From a virus, in IMG/VR virus record IMGVR_UViG_3300049491_000021, positions 1 to 26,234 of that record: DNA of 26,234 nt. One strand, given 5' to 3'. Of the stretch, positions 6,520 to 24,343 are shown piece by piece (position 1 is the stretch's first letter; each line of letters begins with the position of its first letter). Position numbers and translations under genes: made by a program. The notes under the pieces were generated by a model that was not told the DNA's origin, made no database searches, and saw only the letters and a list, made by a program, of their open reading frames with translations.

Positions 6520-9500
6520 GTGGCCACCCATACCTTCCAGATTGTCGTCACCCAGTCCGGCGCTCAGGCGACGGCGGCTGCGATTGGTCAGGTCGGTGCT
6601 TCCGCTCAGAAGTCAGCCAGCGCACTTCAGTTCTTTCGGCAGGCCCTCGTCGTGGCGTCTACCATCCGAGCGGCCACTGGACTCGTGGACATCATCGACG
6701 CAGCGACTCGCATGGACAACCGTCTGCGTGTGGCCACGAAGTCCTTGGAAGAGTTCAACAGGGCTCAGCAGTTCGTCTCTCAGATTTCCCGGCAGACTCG
6801 TACCGACATTGAAGGCAACGCGATCACCTATGCTCGTCTCCTTCGTTCGACCGAAGGTCTCGGCTACTCGACGGAATACCTTGAGAAGGTCATGAAGGGC
6901 CTCGCCCTGTCTGTCAAGGTCGGTGGCGCAACCTCCATGGAAGCTCGAAACTCCATGATTCAGTTCACGCAGTCTCTCGCGTCCGGCGCGCTGCGTGGTG
7001 ACGAGCTTCGTTCCGTGGCCGAGCAGTTGCCCGCCCTTGCTACCGCAATCGGTAAGGAGTTCGGCATCAGCGGTGGTCAGTTGATCGCATTTGCCAAGGC
7101 CAACCCCGGCATCCTTGAGACCGAGCGTGTCATCAAGGCCGTGGCTGCTGCCGCGCCTGAACTTCAGAAGGAGTTCGACAAGACTCTGCCGACTATCGAA
7201 GAGGGGTTCATCGCCATCAAGACCGGCGCTATTGAGATGTTCGGTGAAATCAATCGTGGCACCGGCATCTTCGGTGGTCTCAGCCGTGCGCTTACTTTCA
7301 TGGGCAACAACTTGAACCTCGTGGTCGTGGCTGCTGCTGCCCTCGTGGCTGTTCGGTACGCGGCCACCATGGCTGGATGGATTGGTGCTTCGTCTAATGC
7401 TGTCGGTGCATTCATCTCGCTCGCGGGTGGTGTGCGTTCGCTGACGAGTGCCATGGCCCTCATGCAGGCTGCCTTCCTGATCAACCCCATCACTGTGTGG
7501 GTTGCGGCCATTGCGGCTGCGGGTGTTGCGCTGGTCGGGTTCTACAATACCGTGCCTGCCGTGAAGCGCGCGGTTGATGGTCTCTACACTGCCTTCATCA
7601 CCATCGTGGATGTCTACTTCAAGATGGTCTCTGCCATTGGTGACTCGCTGCCCTCTTGGTTCACGTTCTCGAATGTGATGGAGGCTGTCGGCAAGACCAT
7701 TGCCCTGCTCATCGCGGCATTCACCAACGTCATCACGTTCGCCTTCGTGCCCTTCGTGGTCGGTGCTGAGGTCGTGGCACGTGTACTGAATGCCCTTGGA
7801 CTCGCTTCAAACGAGACGGTCCATAACATGGCTGTGGCTCGCACGGAAATAGTCAGCTATGCGCAGAGCCTGCTCGACGGCGGTAAGGCTGCGAATGATG
7901 CAGGCACGGCGGTGAGGGGTGCAAGCGATAGCATCGTAGGCATGATCAATCCGTTGGTTAGTGCCAAGTCTGGCACTGATGCGGCCAAGGCATCTGCTGC
8001 TTCTTTGGCCGACGAAATCAAGAAGGTCGATGAGGGTTATCGGATTGCGGGTGAGCGCTTCACCGGCTTTGCAACCACCATCCCTTCCTCGGTTGATGGC
8101 TTCAACAACCTCGCGCGTGTCACCAAGGACTGGGAGAAGTACACCACGGACGCAGGTACGGCGGTGACCAACACGGCTTCCGCATCCACGGCTGCCAAGG
8201 CCCCGACCGACCAGCTTGGCGGGTCCATGAGCAACGTGAACAAGCAGGCATCCGGCGCGGCCACTGCCTCGCGCACGTTGGCTTTTGCAATGCAGTCCAG
8301 CGCAGAGTCCTCGACCACCGCTGCAAAACAGGTGAAGGAGTTCGCTGACTTCATGGCTCAGTTGAACCCTCTCATGGTGGCTGCCAAGGCTGCTGGTGAG
8401 GCTGCTGCCGCTGGTTTCAATGCGGCTGGCAATGCGGCCAATGATTCGTCTGCTGGCATCCGCAACCTTGCGGCGGCCTATCGTGAGCTTGCAGCGGCCA
8501 AGGCAGCGGCTGGCTCTGGTGGTTCGGGCAGCGGCTCGGGTAGTGCTCCTGTCGAGGCGCGCGCAGGTGGTGGCCCGGTGCTTTCCGGCAGCACCTATCT
8601 CGTTGGTGAGAAGGGTCCCGAACTGTTCACCGCTGGTGCAACCGGCAACATCATTCCGAACCATGCGCTTCAGTCGAACGGCACGACCGCCGCTAACGAC
8701 AACACTGTGCTCATCGTCAAGGCCATCAACCGCATGGCCAATGCTGTCGTGGCCAGCAACAAGGTTGCCGCGTCCGCCAACAATCAGGTGGCTCAGGAGA
8801 TTGCTGTCCAGAATGACAACAGTACCAAGATGCTCAGGAACTCGGCTGTTGCTTATCAGAACTCTCAGTCCTTCAAGGGCACAGGGTACTCGGCGGAGGG
8901 CCGTTCTTTTGAAAATGACCCGAACTTCAACTGGTTGTCCTACGGCGAGGGCCAGCTTCAGTATGGTGCTAACTACCATGTTGGCACAGATGAGTTCGGT
9001 GACCAGAAGTACGCCAACCCGGAAGACTATTCAAAGTGGATGAAAGCCAACAAGGTTCTTGCTGGTGACGAAGCATACCGTGCGAGCACTAAAATGGCCA
9101 ACGGTACCTTTGGTGGGATGGCTGGATACTCTGGCACCTTCGATCCCAACAAGCCGTATGATGAGGAATCCTTGCGTGAAAAGTCCAAGCTGGCTATGCT
9201 TGAGGCATCTTTGGAGCGCTATGGACTTGATGCCTTTGCATACAGCAACATCGACATTCTCGGGATGATTGAAGATCAGAAAAAGGTTGTGGCTTTCCTT
9301 GCGGAGAAGTCTGATACTGCGGTCGCAAAGCTCAAGGAATATCGTGATGCTGGTGAGAACTATAACCAGTTTCAGGCTGCCTTGCCGGAGATGATGAAGG
9401 TCGCGTCCAAGATTCAGGACTTCCAGACCCTGACCCCCATGCAGGGTGGCAAGGACTACGGCAGCAATGACCCGTATGGCCTCGGCAACGCGCCGCGCCC

Positions 9501-15433: not shown

Positions 15434-18400
15434 ATGTCGAACAACCTTGGGCGCACGGAAGTCAGCGTCTCGCAGACGCAAAAGGAACTGGCCATCAACA
15501 ACAGCGATGGTGTGCTTGATGCTGCCATCACGGCTCAGTTGATGGTATCGTGGTCCGGCGCCGATGCGTTGAAGGTCCTCACCACGACTCAGCTTCGTCA
15601 GAACAGCACGTTCGTCATGGATGGCACGACCTCTGAAGTTGCGCCGGTCCTGAAGATGGCTGCCGTCCAGCGCGGTATGGTGCTCGTTGACAATGACCTC
15701 AGTGTGGACATCATCGTCACGGACGACACTTCCACCGATGAAGTCGTCATCAGTGCTGGCGTTCTCGGTGCCATCTATGTTACCGCCACGGGTGTGCGCC
15801 GTATTTTCGAAGCTGACTCCATCGTGTTGCCGGGTGACGTGTCCGGCACCGTGCGTGTGGCCACGACTGCCAACATCACCATCGCCACCGCACTGAATAA
15901 CGGTGACACTATTGATGGTGTGGTGCTCGCAACCAACGACCGTGTCCTCGTCAAGAACCAGAGCACGGGTGCCGAGAATGGTATCTACGTTGTCGATGCG
16001 GTTCCGTTCCGCGCAACTGATTTCGATGATGGTACGACTGAGGTTTATGCGGGTGTGCTCGTCTCCGTCACAGAAGGCACGGCCAACGCCGATACTCTGT
16101 GGATGATGTCTACCAACAACCCCATCACTGTAGGGGTGACCGCGCTCAGCTTCAAGCAGTTGAACCAGACCGCCACCACCTACGCGACCAATGCGCAGGT
16201 CCTCGCGGGCACTGTCACGGGCCGCGCGGTTGACCCGGCCAAGCTGGCCTCGCTGTGGAAGAAGGGTTCGGACATCGCGTCCGCTGCCACCATCAGCGTT
16301 GGCAATGGCCGTTACTTCCATGTCACCGGCACCACCGGCATCACGGACATCGACTTCGCTACGGCCACCAATGGCCGCGAAGCTGTGCTCATCTTCAATG
16401 GTGTGCTCACCATCACGCACAATGCAACCAGCCTCGTCCTGCCGGGTGGTGCGAACATCACGACCGCTGCCGGTGACCGCGCTGCGTTCATTCAGGACAA
16501 CGCGGACAATGTCTATTGCGTCTGGTATCAGCGCGCGGACGGCACGGCTCTTGTGGCTTCCGCTGGCCTCGGTGCATCCACGACCGAAGAAGTCTTGCAG
16601 GGCTCGGATACGGCGGTTTATGTCACGCCCGATGCCTTGGCGGCTCTTTGGGAAAAGGGTGCGGATGTCGCGTCGGCCAGCACCACCTCGCTCGGTGAGG
16701 GTGGACTCTTCCACATCACCGGCACGACCACCATCAACGACATCGACTGGTCTACCGCCAAGAATGGCCGCGCTGCGGTCCTCATCTTCGATGGCATCCT
16801 GACCATCACGTATAACGCAACGACCATGAAGCTGCCGGGTGCGGCCAGTATCACCACGGCTGCCGGTGACACTGCGATGTTCGTTCAGGACTCGTCCGAC
16901 AATGTGGTCTGCGTCTGGTATCAGCGCGCCGATGGCACTCCCATCACCAACGTGGCTTTCACTGCTGCCAGCACCACTGACATCCTGACCGGCACGAATA
17001 CCACGAAGGCTGCCACGGCTGACGCGATTGCGGCTCTGTGGGAAAAGGGCTCCAACGTGGCTTCGGCTGCCACCATCTCACTCGGTGAGGGTGGATATTT
17101 CCACATCACAGGCACGACCACTATCACTGACATCGACTGGGCGACTGCGAAGAATGGCCGCGCTGCGGTCCTCGTGTTCGATGGTGCCCTTACCCTCACC
17201 CACAATGCCACTACTCTCATTCTGCCCGGTGGCGCGAACATCACGACCGCTGCCGGTGATCGTGCCATGTTCATTCAGGATGCGTCGGACAACGTCTATT
17301 GCGTCTGGTACACCAAGGCGGATGGTACATCGGTTGTTAGCTCCAGCATTTCGCTCACGAGCACGACCGAAATCCTGACCGGCACGGATGCGGCCAAGGC
17401 TGCCACGGCTGACGCGATTGCGGCTCTGTGGGAGAAGGGTGCTGACGTTGCTTCGGCGGCTACGGTCACTTTTGCTGAGGGTGGGTACTTCCACATCACC
17501 GGCACGACCACGATCACTGACATCGACTGGGCGACTGCGAAGAATGGCAGGTGGGCTTGGGTGATCTTCGATGCGGCTCTCACGTTGACGCACAATGCCA
17601 CCACTCTGCTCCTGCCCGGCGCGGCCAACATCACGACTGCCGCGAATGATCGTGCGTTGTTCATTCAGGATGCGGCGGATAACGTCTACTGCGTTGTCTA
17701 CCAGCGCGCCGATGGCACCGCGATTGACGGTGGTGGCTCCTTCCTCGCCGCATCCACGACTGAAGCACTGACGGGCACCAATACGACCAAGGGTGTGACC
17801 CCGGACGCATTGGCCGCGCTGTGGGAGAAGGGCTCCAACGTGGCTTCGGCTGCCACTGTCAGCCTTGGTGAGGGCGGACTCTTCCACATCACCGGCACGA
17901 CCACCATCACCGACATCGACTTCGGCACTGCCAAGGATGGCCGCTCTGCGTGGCTCATCTTCGATGGCGCGCTGACACTGACGCATAACGCCACGACCCT
18001 TGTCTTGCCGGGTGGCGCAAACATCACGACCGCTGCCGGTGACATGGCCTTCGTGACTCAGGATAGCGGCGACAACGTCTATGTTCGCTACTTCCGTGCG
18101 AATGGTAAGTCTGTCATCCCCACGACTCAGGTGATCGCAATCGCTGTGTCTGATGAGACCACCAACCTCACCACGGGCACCGCCAAGACGACTTTCCGTA
18201 TGCCCTTCGCTTTCACGGTCACTGATGTGCGCGCAAGCGTCACGACTGTGGCCACTGGCGGCACCCTGCTCACTGTGGACGTGAACGAGTCTGGCTCCAG
18301 CATCATCTCGACCAAGCTCACTTTCGATGCTTCCGAGAAGACGACAACTACTGCTGCCACGCCGCGTGTTATCTCTGACACGGCGCTGGCTGATGATGCG

Positions 18401-19781: not shown

Positions 19782-20825
19782 ATGTTCTCGTCTGCCGTAA
19801 TTGCCAAGGTCAAGAAGACCGCAACCGAAATTGATGTCGAAGCTGCTGCCCTGTTGGCGGTCGGTGAGGTCGAATCTGCGGGCAACCCCATGTGGGATGT
19901 GGCCGGTGAGAAGTTGCCACCCATCCGCTTCGAAGGCCACTACTTCCACAAGCGCCTCAAGGGCGACAAGCTGGCCGCTGCGGTGGCTGCGGGGCTCGCC
20001 AACCCCAAGGCAGGTGCTGTCAAGAATCCGGGCTCCTACGGGGCTCGCTATGCCCTTCTGGAACGCGCTGCCCGCATCGACAAGCAGGCTGCCTACGAGT
20101 CCACCTCGTGGGGCCTCGGTCAGGTCATGGGTGCCCACTGGAAGAAGCTCGGCTACGGCTCGGTCGATGCCCTCGTAGCTGCCGCCAAGTCCGGCGTCGA
20201 TGGACAGATTGCCATCATGGCCAAGTACATCCTGAAGTTCGGCCTCGTGGACGAGCTTCAGACCAAGGGGTGGCAGTCGTTCGCTGACCAGTACAATGGC
20301 CCGGCCAGCCGCAAGAACCGCTACGGCGAGAAGATTGCCGCTGCCTACAAGAACTACGTCAAGGTGCTGGCTGGCTCCGTCACTTCCGATGGCATCCCGG
20401 CAGATGGCAATGACACCATCAGGCATTACCAGCGCGACCTCAAGCGCCTCGGCTTCTACAAGGGTGAGGTGGACGGTGTTGCAGGTGCTCGCACCAAGGC
20501 AGCCGTGAAGGCTCTCCAGAAGGCCAACGGGCTCGTGGCAGACGGCAAGTACGGGAAGATGACCGATGAGGTTGTGGACCGCCTGATTGCCGCCCTCGAC
20601 CGTTCTGGCGGCGACACGGCGGTAAAGACTGGCACCGGCATCACCGGCACGGGCGCGGTCGTGGACATCATCAAGGAGCAGACTGATACCCTTCAGTCCG
20701 TGGCCGACTACTCGCACATCATCACCTACGCGGTTATCGCGCTGGTGGTCATCGGCGTGGCCCTGACCCTTGTCGGCGTATGGAAGAAGTACAAGGCCGG
20801 AATGGCAACTGACGGGACGGTGTAA
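19782..20825 (+). CDS. Endolysin: muramidase plus peptidoglycan-binding domain, membrane-anchored
   Basis: This 347-residue protein has an AAAAGGAG ribosome-binding site. The N-terminal domain (about 1-195) matches the N-acetylmuramidase family: LLAVGEVESAGNP with the likely catalytic Glu near 31, PPIRFEGHYFHKRL, STSWGLGQVMG and FADQYNGP. It should cut the glycan strands of the cell wall. Residues about 212-270 form a PG-binding repeat (IRHYQRDLKRLGFYKGEVDGVAGARTKAAVKALQ...). A Gly/Thr-rich linker leads to a C-terminal membrane segment at about 312-333 followed by a short basic tail. A C-terminal anchor on a lysin is uncommon and suggests the enzyme is held in the membrane before release. Confidence 0.85.
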   Translation: MFSSAVIAKVKKTATEIDVEAAALLAVGEVESAGNPMWDVAGEKLPPIRFEGHYFHKRLKGDKLAAAVAAGLANPKAGAVKNPGSYGARYALLERAARIDKQAAYESTSWGLGQVMGAHWKKLGYGSVDALVAAAKSGVDGQIAIMAKYILKFGLVDELQTKGWQSFADQYNGPASRKNRYGEKIAAAYKNYVKVLAGSVTSDGIPADGNDTIRHYQRDLKRLGFYKGEVDGVAGARTKAAVKALQKANGLVADGKYGKMTDEVVDRLIAALDRSGGDTAVKTGTGITGTGAVVDIIKEQTDTLQSVADYSHIITYAVIALVVIGVALTLVGVWKKYKAGMATDGTV

Positions 20826-21270: not shown

Positions 21271-21582
21271 ATGGAACGTAACGGTGAAAACGATGTGTTC
21301 ACGAAGGCTGAGGTGGAAGCCATCGCTGAAACTGCGGCTGACCGTGCGCTCGCTTCTCTCTTTGAGAAACTGGACATCGACGTGAACAGCAAGGAGTCGA
21401 TGCGCAAGTTCAGGGACAACCTCACCTTCCTTGATGACCAGCGGCAGGGCTCCATTGCCCTCAAGCAGAACATCAAGAAGTCCATGCTCTATGTGTCCGG
21501 CACGGCGCTGCTCGGGCTCATGTACTTCCTGTGGGATGCGCTGAAGGATGGCTTGCACATGTGGCTCGTCAACCTGAAGTAA
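21271..21582 (+). CDS. Lysis-cassette protein with one C-terminal membrane segment
   Basis: This 103-residue protein has an AAAGGAG ribosome-binding site. The first 65 residues are charged and helical (KAEVEAIAETAADRALASLFEKL, then SMRKFRDNLTFLDDQRQGS), followed by one hydrophobic helix (MLYVSGTALLGLMYFLWDAL). Similar short proteins (N-terminal helix with the MRxFRxNLxFLxxxR motif, then one membrane segment) occur next to holins in alphaproteobacterial phages and are poorly characterised. A holin partner, antiholin or regulator is possible; I cannot decide. Confidence 0.65.
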   Translation: MERNGENDVFTKAEVEAIAETAADRALASLFEKLDIDVNSKESMRKFRDNLTFLDDQRQGSIALKQNIKKSMLYVSGTALLGLMYFLWDALKDGLHMWLVNLK

Positions 21583-21871: not shown

Positions 21872-21949
21872 TGGCGGGGGAGCTAGGATTCGAACCTCGA
21901 TAACTTGGTTCAGAGCCAAGGGTCCTACCGTTAGACGAACCGAGAATGG
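21872..21949 (-). tRNA. tRNA-Gln (anticodon CTG), acceptor stem does not pair
   Basis: On the - strand the anticodon arm is CTTGG-CTCTGAA-CCAAG, giving anticodon CTG (codon CAG). The D-arm (GTTC...GGAC with a GG in the loop) and T-loop TTCGAAT are normal, and CCA is encoded (21872-21874). The 3' acceptor strand CTCCCCC needs GGGGGAG at the 5' end, but the sequence there reads CCATTCT, and the T-stem has a G-A mismatch. The 5' end overlaps the CCA of the next tRNA by 3 nt. It may be a degenerate gene, or one that needs repair. Confidence 0.6.
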
Positions 21950-22022
21950 CACATAGGGAAGGACTCGAACCTCTAGCTGCTGGTTTCTGAAACCAGTGCG
22001 TCTACCATTTCGCCATCGGGGC
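21947..22022 (-). tRNA. tRNA-Leu-like (anticodon CAG), non-matching halves
   Basis: The 5' half is Leu-like: GCCCCGA, then TGGCGAAATGGTAGACGC as D-arm, then CTGGT-TTCAGAA-ACCAG with anticodon CAG (codon CUG). The 3' half differs: the variable loop is only about 5 nt, where Leu tRNAs have a long arm, and the acceptor strand CCTATGT-G-CCA would need ACATAGG at the 5' end rather than GCCCCGA. The T-stem is weakened by one mismatch and a G-U pair. CCA is encoded at 21947-21949. It looks like the 5' part of a Leu tRNA joined to the 3' part of another class. Confidence 0.55.
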
Positions 22023-22023
22023 T

Positions 22024-22099
22024 TGGTTGACAGGGCAGGGTTTGAACCTACGACCACTCGATTATCGGTCGAGCGCTCTACCAACTGAGCTACCTGTCA
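22024..22099 (-). tRNA. tRNA-Ile (anticodon GAT)
   Basis: This is a complete 76-nt cloverleaf with encoded CCA. The acceptor stem TGACAGG/CCTGTCA is perfect, the D-arm is GCTC-AGTTGGTA-GAGC, the anticodon arm CTCGA-CCGATAA-TCGAG, and the T-arm GTAGG-TTCAAAC-CCTGC has one G-T pair. The anticodon GAT reads AUC, a codon used very often in this phage. Position 33 is C instead of the nearly universal U. Confidence 0.9.
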
Positions 22100-22254
22100 T
22101 CACTGCGAGTAGGCGTGTACTGACGCCTCGTGTTAGTTGCTCCGGCTGTGAGACCGGCTACCCGTTGGGCAGGGTGCTAGGGTTTCACACCCCTAAGCCA
22201 TTTTCAGGCGGCAACCCGTCATGAAGGAGAACCCCAACGGCTCTCGCAGAAAGT

Positions 22255-22297
22255 GAAGGCCGGAGTTAGCAGTCCTTGCTCCGGCCTTCTGAATTTT
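22255..22297 (+). terminator. Probable terminator of the + strand late block
   Basis: GAAGGCCGGAG (22255-22265) pairs perfectly with CTCCGGCCTTC (22279-22289) around a 13-nt loop, followed on the + strand by TGAATTTT. The T-tail is short and interrupted. On the - strand the same stem is followed by ACTTT. It is the strongest stem downstream of the lysis genes and may stop transcription in either direction. Confidence 0.55.
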
Positions 22298-22332
22298 AGC
22301 GGGTCTTACCCCAGTCCTTCTAGCGATTCGTC

Positions 22333-22480: not shown

Positions 22481-24259
22481 CTATTCGCAGTTCCGGCGTC
22501 CAGTGGCCGGGTCGAAGGTGCAGGTGGAGCCTTCCATCACAGCGGACATCACTGGGGCCTCTGGCGTGGCCACTGATGCCCTGTCATCCCCATCCTTGTC
22601 CGTGAGCAGGGCGAAGCGCTTGCCGTCCTTGTTGAAGGTCGTGAGGCCCTTGGCACCCCCTTCATAGGCCGTCTGGTAGATGCCCACGAAGTCCTTGAAG
22701 GCGACATGCTTGTCCACGTTCACGGTTTTGCTGACGGCAGAGTCGACTCGGGCAGCCGCCACGAGGAAGACGGACAGGTGCTCGGCCACTGTGACCTGAG
22801 CCGTGGTCTTGCCCCTCACCCCAAGCTGAGACAAGCCGTAGTCCTGCACCGTGACAATATGCTTGCCGCCCGGCATGTCCACTGGGCGTTCGGTCTCCAG
22901 CGCGAACACAGGCTCAATACCGCCCGACATGTTGTCAGCCGTGAAGCTGATGGTGCCAGTCGGCGCGATAGAAGTCAGGTGTGAATTGCGGATGCCGTAC
23001 CGCTGGATTCCATCCTTGATGTCCTCGGGCAGGTCCTTCACGAAGTTGCCTTCCAGATAGAGGTCCGCGTCGAAGAGTTTGAATACACCCTTCTCCTTGG
23101 CAATATCAATACTAGCAAGGTAGGCCTCGTCACGCAGGATGTTCAGCAGTTTGGTTTCGAAGGTGGTGAACCCGATGGAGCCATAGGGGAGCCCCATAGC
23201 CTCCAGCGCGTTGGCAAGGCCGGTGATACCCAAGCCCATGCGGCGCTTGTTGATGGCCTCTTCCTTCTGCTGAGGCAGTGGATAGTTCGCCTTGTCGATG
23301 ACGTTGTCCATCATGCGAACCACGGGCGCGATGTCAGCAATGAACTGCTCCCAGTCGAAATAGTACCCCGCCAAGTCGCGTTTCAGGTACTTGGGCACAG
23401 CGAAGCTGCCGAGCAGACACGCACCATAGGGCGGCAGCGGCTGCTCACCACACGGGTTGGTCGCTGCGATGCGTTCGCAGTACCAGAGGTTATTCATGCG
23501 ATTGATGGTATCAAGGAAGAGCACACCCGGCTCTGCCCACTCCCAAGTGGTCGTCATGATGAGGGTCCAAAGCTCGCGGGCATCGACGGTCGAATAGACA
23601 CGGCCACCAAAACGCAAATCGAAAGTCCCGTTGCGAGCAACCGCCTCCATGAGTTCGTCGGTGACTCCGACCGACACATTGAAGCCGGTCAGGAACTTGT
23701 TGTTCATCTTCATGGTGATGAATTTGATGATGTCCGGGTGGTCGCAACGGAGCACACCCATCTCGGCACCACGGCGGTCACCGGCAGACGAGGTAGCCTG
23801 ACAGACGGCGTCGAACACCGGCATGAAAGCAATCGGCCCGTCAGTTCTGGCGCGAACGCCCATAATCATGTCGCCTGCCGGACGCAGAGTCGAAAAGTCG
23901 TAGCCGATACCACCACCCTGCCGCATGGTTTGCGCGGCCAGCTTCGCGGCATCCATGATGGAGACCGAGCGCATGTCATCTCCAGCCACACGTGGACCAT
24001 CGACAAACGAGTCATGGATGGTGGGTGAGACGAAGCAGTTGTAAGGCGTGACAATCTTGGGGGAGCCAGCCCACGCCTGAATGCGGCCAGCGGGCATGAA
24101 GCGCATGTTGCTGGTGATGTCGAACAGAACCTGCTCATGCTGGTAGTCGTCGGACAACGCCAAGGAGATGCGCTTGGCATAACCCTCATAGGACTCCCCC
24201 TCAGCGCGGTACTTCGTGGCATGCAGATGGTCGCAAAAAGGGAGCGAGGGTCCGGTCAT
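22481..24259 (-). CDS. nrdJ: Class II ribonucleotide reductase (adenosylcobalamin-dependent)
   Basis: This 592-residue enzyme reduces ribonucleotides to deoxyribonucleotides for phage DNA synthesis. I start it at the ATG at 24259, 6 nt after GGAG (24269-24266); the frame is open to 24337 but has no better site. Key residues: Cys75 in PYNCF; Asn268, Cys270 and Glu272 in NPCGEQPL; and Cys281, the redox partner of Cys75, exactly 11 residues after Cys270 as in known class II enzymes. GGGIGYDFSTLRPAG, TGFNVSVGVTD and APTGTISFTADNMSGGIEP are further family motifs. A C-terminal pair (CTFDPATGRRNC) would pass electrons from thioredoxin. No small subunit gene is nearby, which also fits class II. Confidence 0.92.
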   Translation of the reverse strand: MTGPSLPFCDHLHATKYRAEGESYEGYAKRISLALSDDYQHEQVLFDITSNMRFMPAGRIQAWAGSPKIVTPYNCFVSPTIHDSFVDGPRVAGDDMRSVSIMDAAKLAAQTMRQGGGIGYDFSTLRPAGDMIMGVRARTDGPIAFMPVFDAVCQATSSAGDRRGAEMGVLRCDHPDIIKFITMKMNNKFLTGFNVSVGVTDELMEAVARNGTFDLRFGGRVYSTVDARELWTLIMTTTWEWAEPGVLFLDTINRMNNLWYCERIAATNPCGEQPLPPYGACLLGSFAVPKYLKRDLAGYYFDWEQFIADIAPVVRMMDNVIDKANYPLPQQKEEAINKRRMGLGITGLANALEAMGLPYGSIGFTTFETKLLNILRDEAYLASIDIAKEKGVFKLFDADLYLEGNFVKDLPEDIKDGIQRYGIRNSHLTSIAPTGTISFTADNMSGGIEPVFALETERPVDMPGGKHIVTVQDYGLSQLGVRGKTTAQVTVAEHLSVFLVAAARVDSAVSKTVNVDKHVAFKDFVGIYQTAYEGGAKGLTTFNKDGKRFALLTDKDGDDRASVATPEAPVMSAVMEGSTCTFDPATGRRNCE

Positions 24260-24298
24260 GATATTCTCCATGTTGGTGTGGGTTCGCTGAAATGCGAA

Positions 24299-24323
24299 CG
24301 AGCGGACATGGTTAATCCGCTCG
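24299..24323 (-). other. Hairpin in the leader of the reductase gene
   Basis: CGAGCGGA pairs with TCCGCTCG (8 bp, 9-nt loop). On the - strand it is followed by TTCGCATTTCAGCGAA, itself a 5-bp hairpin (24283-24298). The pair sits between the diphosphohydrolase stop and the reductase ribosome-binding site. A TTGACC (24336-24331) followed after 17 nt by TAACCA overlaps the first stem and could be a promoter. A control element for reductase expression is possible but unproven. Confidence 0.45.
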
Positions 24324-24343
24324 TGAAGTGTGGTCAAGCCTGT

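What the first reader, a model, noticed from the sequence alone, without database searches (positions are those of the whole stretch)
21872..22022. Two phage tRNA genes whose acceptor strands cannot pair
The Gln and Leu genes have normal anticodon arms, D-arms, T-loops and encoded CCA, but their 5' acceptor strands (CCATTCT and GCCCCGA) do not match their 3' strands (CTCCCCC and CCTATGT). The Leu gene has a Leu-type 5' half but a short variable loop, so it reads as a hybrid of two tRNAs. Either both genes are decaying, or the RNAs are edited, act as decoys for anticodon nucleases, or work without a normal acceptor stem.
Basis: partly seen in the sequence, partly recalled or inferred. Interest (0 to 1): 0.72.

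Follow-up and report, generated by a model that had tools for sequence, protein, structure and literature searches.

The report
Two phage tRNA genes fused by deletions
Two phage tRNA genes that look impossible to fold are the leftovers of two short deletions, each of which joined the front of one tRNA gene to the tail of another; a related virus still carries the intact genes, so this is ordinary gene decay and not a new kind of RNA.

Summary
The cause was found in a related virus contig (L005, IMGVR_UViG_3300049491_000072). It holds the intact array Ile-Leu(CAG)-Met-Asn-Gln-Trp. Removing 158 bp and 79 bp from that array, each between two copies of a 13-bp T-arm repeat, gives the window sequence over 221 bp with 3 substitutions and no gaps. 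Those two repeats are the only exact direct repeats of 10 bp or more in the array segment. The window genes are therefore Leu(5')/Asn(3') and Gln(5')/Trp(3') fusions, almost certainly non-functional and recent (2 differences in 151 bp, against 26-43% at fourfold sites of nearby genes). Only tRNA-Ile remains intact. The short variable loop is not a sign of hybridity: the intact Leu gene has it too, as do at least 60 intact Leu-type tRNAs in other viral contigs. Editing, decoy or stemless function is neither needed nor supported.

The parts
22024..22099 (-). tRNA-Ile (GAT), intact, first gene of the array
   Evidence: ARAGORN; Rfam tRNA 68.5 bits over the full model; most of it lies in an exact 127-bp match to L005
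21947..22022 (-). Chimeric tRNA pseudogene: 5' part of tRNA-Leu(CAG) fused to 3' end of tRNA-Asn; acceptor 3/7 pairs
   Evidence: Partial Rfam hit; exact matches to L005 Leu and Asn genes on either side of the junction
21960..21972 (.). Deletion junction 2: single remaining copy of AGGACTCGAACCT (T-arm); 158 bp absent (Leu 3' end, all of Met, Asn 5' part)
   Evidence: L005 has two copies, at 8624 and 8782
21872..21945 (-). Chimeric tRNA pseudogene: 5' part of tRNA-Gln(CTG) fused to 3' end of tRNA-Trp; acceptor 2/7 pairs
   Evidence: Partial Rfam hit; matches to L005 Gln and Trp genes on either side of the junction
21885..21897 (.). Deletion junction 1: single remaining copy of AGGATTCGAACCT (T-arm); 79 bp absent (Gln 3' end, Trp 5' part)
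   Evidence: L005 has two copies, at 8470 and 8549

Best explanation
The two genes are chimeric tRNA pseudogenes. An ancestor carried the array Ile-Leu(CAG)-Met-Asn-Gln-Trp, as relative L005 still does. Two deletions, of 158 bp and 79 bp, took place between short direct repeats in the T-arms (the most conserved part of tRNA genes). Slipped mispairing during replication or single-strand annealing is the likely route. Each deletion kept one repeat copy and joined the 5' part of one tRNA (acceptor 5' strand, D-arm, anticodon arm) to the 3' acceptor strand and CCA of another. The acceptor strands therefore come from different tRNAs and cannot pair. Shown: the intact array in a relative, the exact junctions, the repeat lengths and the reproduction of the window sequence. 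Inferred: the direction of change (deletion, not insertion), the slippage or annealing route, and loss of function.
For: L005 has five ARAGORN tRNA genes (Trp, Gln, Asn, Met, Leu) with acceptor pairing of 6, 7, 7, 5 and 7 of 7, plus tRNA-Ile at the contig edge. Exact-match blocks switch from Leu to Asn and from Gln to Trp at 13-bp repeats. Simulating both deletions on L005 gives 218/221 identical bases and no gaps. The two repeats used are the only exact direct repeats of 10 bp or more in that array segment; the next longest are 9 bp. Both chimeras carry a T-stem mismatch as well as a broken acceptor, as a T-loop junction predicts. The deleted pieces are not found elsewhere in the window; only generic tRNA similarity appears. 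Precedent: phage deletions flanked by direct repeats, with many borders inside tRNA genes (PMC5449768).
Against: There is only one relative with the intact array, and its contig ends inside tRNA-Ile. The window is an uncultivated assembly without reads, so an amplification or assembly chimera is not formally excluded, although 13 bp is shorter than usual assembly k-mers (own knowledge). The rest of the genome is unseen and could hold intact copies. Loss of function is inferred from structure, not measured.
Confidence: 0.93

Rival explanations
1. Assembly or amplification artefact: the virus has an intact array, and the contig was mis-joined at the T-arm repeats (polymerase template switching or assembler collapse).
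For: The junctions lie exactly at the longest repeats; the window is a metagenomic virus record; no second contig with either junction was found.
Against: 13 bp is shorter than the k-mers of common assemblers (own knowledge), and two separate mis-joins within 100 bp would both have to win the consensus. The collection scans may leave out the window's own record, so the lack of a second contig is weak evidence.
Confidence: 0.04
2. The fused RNAs are kept as decoys or sponges (for example for anticodon nucleases), or work without an acceptor stem, or are repaired by editing.
For: D-arm, anticodon arm, T-loop and CCA remain; only 2 of 151 bases differ from the intact parts in L005.
Against: Low divergence is expected if the deletions are recent. 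Four to five substitutions per acceptor stem would need editing. Both RNAs fold no better than shuffles. No homologue shares the fusions.
Confidence: 0.02
3. Insertion in the opposite direction: the chimeras are ancestral, and L005 gained tRNA pieces at the T-arm repeats.
For: The alignment alone is symmetric.
Against: Two insertions would each have had to restore matching acceptor and T-stems of canonical tRNAs by chance.
Confidence: 0.01

Closest known systems
Direct-repeat deletions in phage tRNA regions (T4-like phages CHI14, X20 and CBH8 escaping ToxIN; PMC5449768)
   Same: Deletions flanked by short direct repeats; many 5' borders lie within tRNA genes; slipped mispairing or recombination is proposed there too.
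   Different: Those deletions are 6.5-10 kb, selected in the laboratory and also remove ORFs. Here two small deletions (79 and 158 bp) lie inside the array, both borders fall in T-arms, and two tRNA-tRNA fusions result.
Pseudo-tRNA genes reported in phages (Felix O1; also mentioned for Bxz1, S-PM2 and LP65; PMC3185647)
   Same: tRNA-like genes that lack conserved structural features or carry insertions or deletions.
   Different: Here the exact origin of each part and the mechanism could be traced.

Membership tests
Functional tRNA (RF00005) | 7-bp acceptor stem | tested here: not met
   3/7 and 2/7 pairs; no better boundary than chance; the Rfam matches cover the core only
Functional tRNA (RF00005) | D-arm, anticodon arm and T-loop present, 3' CCA encoded | tested here: met
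   Both cores score above the gathering threshold (33.2 and 33.0 bits); CCA is present
tRNA pseudogene formed by deletion between direct repeats | Intact parental genes in a relative, with a single repeat copy left at the junction | tested here: met
   L005 array; 13-bp repeats; 218/221 identity after simulated deletions
tRNA pseudogene formed by deletion between direct repeats | Loss of aminoacylation and decoding | not testable with these tools
   Needs tRNA sequencing or charging assays
Split or trans-spliced tRNA | Matching partner halves encoded elsewhere | tested here: inconclusive
   The deleted parts are not found elsewhere in the 26-kb window; the rest of the genome is not held

The most novel reading that the evidence does not exclude
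The fused RNAs are expressed and kept because their anticodon arms and elbow still bind a host or defence factor (a nuclease decoy), so that the deletions were selected and not merely tolerated.
Probability: 0.02. Interest if true: 0.6.

Novelty: new member of a known kind. Interest (0 to 1): 0.2.

Why it matters
It shows, to the base, how phage tRNA arrays lose genes: T-arm sequences act as built-in short direct repeats, so deletions remove about one or two tRNA lengths at a time and leave diagnosable fusions. Such fusions can be misread as exotic tRNAs. They appear rare in viral arrays: among 1,257 tRNA cores scanned in sampled loci, the only clear cases with both T-stem and acceptor broken were these two.

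Tried and rejected
Better gene boundaries: no rescue. Short variable loop as a sign of hybridity: rejected, since intact L005 Leu has the same loop and at least 60 viral hits with short loops have 6-7/7 acceptor pairing and discriminator A. A second T-arm chimera was suspected in L018 (Tyr) and dropped: a two-base shift of the 5' boundary restores its acceptor (sequence). Searches for other contigs with either junction: none. Further relatives through the adjacent 103-aa protein: only the same contig. Plasmids: no match. A degenerate pattern for other T-arm fusions gave nothing. Literature on chimeric tRNA genes in phages and on short-armed phage tRNA-Leu: no direct hit in the held library. 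In one search the label printed for the Gln 5' strand is offset by 2 nt; the slide covers the correct position.

Full report
WHAT IS THERE. The window is a 26,234-base virus record with siphophage-like head, tail and lysis genes and a ribonucleotide reductase. Between a small ORF ending near 21582 and the reductase (22481-24337, minus strand) lie three tRNA-like genes on the minus strand. ARAGORN reports only tRNA-Ile. The Rfam tRNA model gives a full match for Ile (68.5 bits) and core-only matches for the other two (33.2 and 33.0 bits, model positions 10-63 and 8-63). The acceptor stems really are unpaired: GCCCCGA/CCTATGT gives 3/7 and TCTCGGT/CTCCCCC 2/7, and both T-stems have one mismatch. 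Sliding the boundaries does not help beyond chance, and both RNAs fold no better than shuffles.

WHERE IT COMES FROM. A search with the endolysin-like protein at 19782-20822 found one close relative, L005 (IMGVR_UViG_3300049491_000072; 90% aa identity). At the same place it has an intact array: Ile (cut by the contig end), Leu(CAG), Met(CAT), Asn(GTT), Gln(CTG), Trp(CCA). Exact-match blocks show that the window reads Ile-Leu up to the T-arm word AGGACTCGAACCT and then continues in the Asn T-arm; it reads Gln up to AGGATTCGAACCT and then continues in the Trp T-arm (words given on the + strand). In L005 these two 13-bp words occur twice each, 158 and 79 bp apart, and no other exact direct repeat of 10 bp or more exists in the segment. 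Applying both deletions to L005 gives 221 bases, of which 218 equal the window, without gaps. The T-stem mismatch in each gene is what a junction inside the T-loop predicts.

DIRECTION, AGE AND FUNCTION. The L005 genes pair properly (7/7 for Leu, Asn and Gln), so the fusions are the derived state. Within the two fusions only 2 of 151 bases (21876 and 21953) differ from L005, whereas fourfold-degenerate sites of three adjacent genes differ by 26-43%. The deletions are therefore recent relative to the split of the two viruses, and the low divergence is not evidence for a retained function. Each fusion combines the anticodon half of one tRNA with the discriminator and acceptor 3' strand of another. 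Without an acceptor stem, RNase P processing, charging and EF-Tu binding are not expected (established tRNA biology; not tested here). The net effect is loss of working Leu, Met, Asn, Gln and Trp genes; only Ile remains in this window.

MECHANISM AND PRECEDENT. Deletion at the longest short direct repeats is the signature of replication slippage or single-strand annealing (inference). There is precedent in phages: in T4-like phages that escape ToxIN, every large deletion was flanked by direct repeats and most 5' borders lay within tRNA genes, whose conserved sequences the authors call readily recombinogenic (PMC5449768). Phage pseudo-tRNAs with deletions have also been reported (PMC3185647). 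In a scan of 1,257 tRNA cores from sampled viral loci, the window's two genes were the only clear cases with both acceptor and T-stem broken; the sample was chosen by patterns that favour intact genes, so this is only a rough rate.

SIDE RESULT. The short variable loop of the Leu gene is original. A pattern for Leu-type D-arm, Leu-type anticodon and short variable loop hit 75 viral stretches, nearly all with intact acceptor stems and discriminator A. The same pattern hit 34 stretches in a collection of 84,980 bacterial and archaeal genomes. Short-armed tRNA-Leu genes thus recur in phages; whether host LeuRS charges them is unknown. No paper on this was found in the held library.

VERDICT. It is a clear, base-level example of a known process.

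Noticed in passing
L005:8769-8844 (minus), L012-L086, L207-L240: tRNA-Leu genes with Leu-type D-arm, Leu anticodon and discriminator A but a short (4-6 nt) variable loop recur in viral contigs (75 stretches) and more rarely in bacterial genomes (34 stretches in 84,980 genomes); nearly all have intact acceptor stems. Charging and identity are unknown.
   Followed up: partly
window 22100-22300: About 200 bp of non-coding DNA between the tRNA array and the reductase gene, with several hairpins (for example 22111-22128) and no Rfam match; fold only slightly better than shuffles (z about -1).
   Followed up: partly
L048:5414-5878 (+): A viral contig matches the permuted tmRNA family (RF04321, 119.7 bits).
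   Followed up: no
L044:5088-14590 (minus): A viral contig with 26 tRNA genes and a tmRNA match (RF00023, 57.2 bits).
   Followed up: no
window 16250-18080: Internal repeats of about 73-75% identity within the large tail-fibre-like gene, seen when the window is compared with L005.
   Followed up: no
L053:8183-8241 and L021:11520-11580 (minus): Two other tRNA cores with poorly paired acceptor ends but intact T-stems, so apparently decayed without a T-arm fusion.
   Followed up: partly
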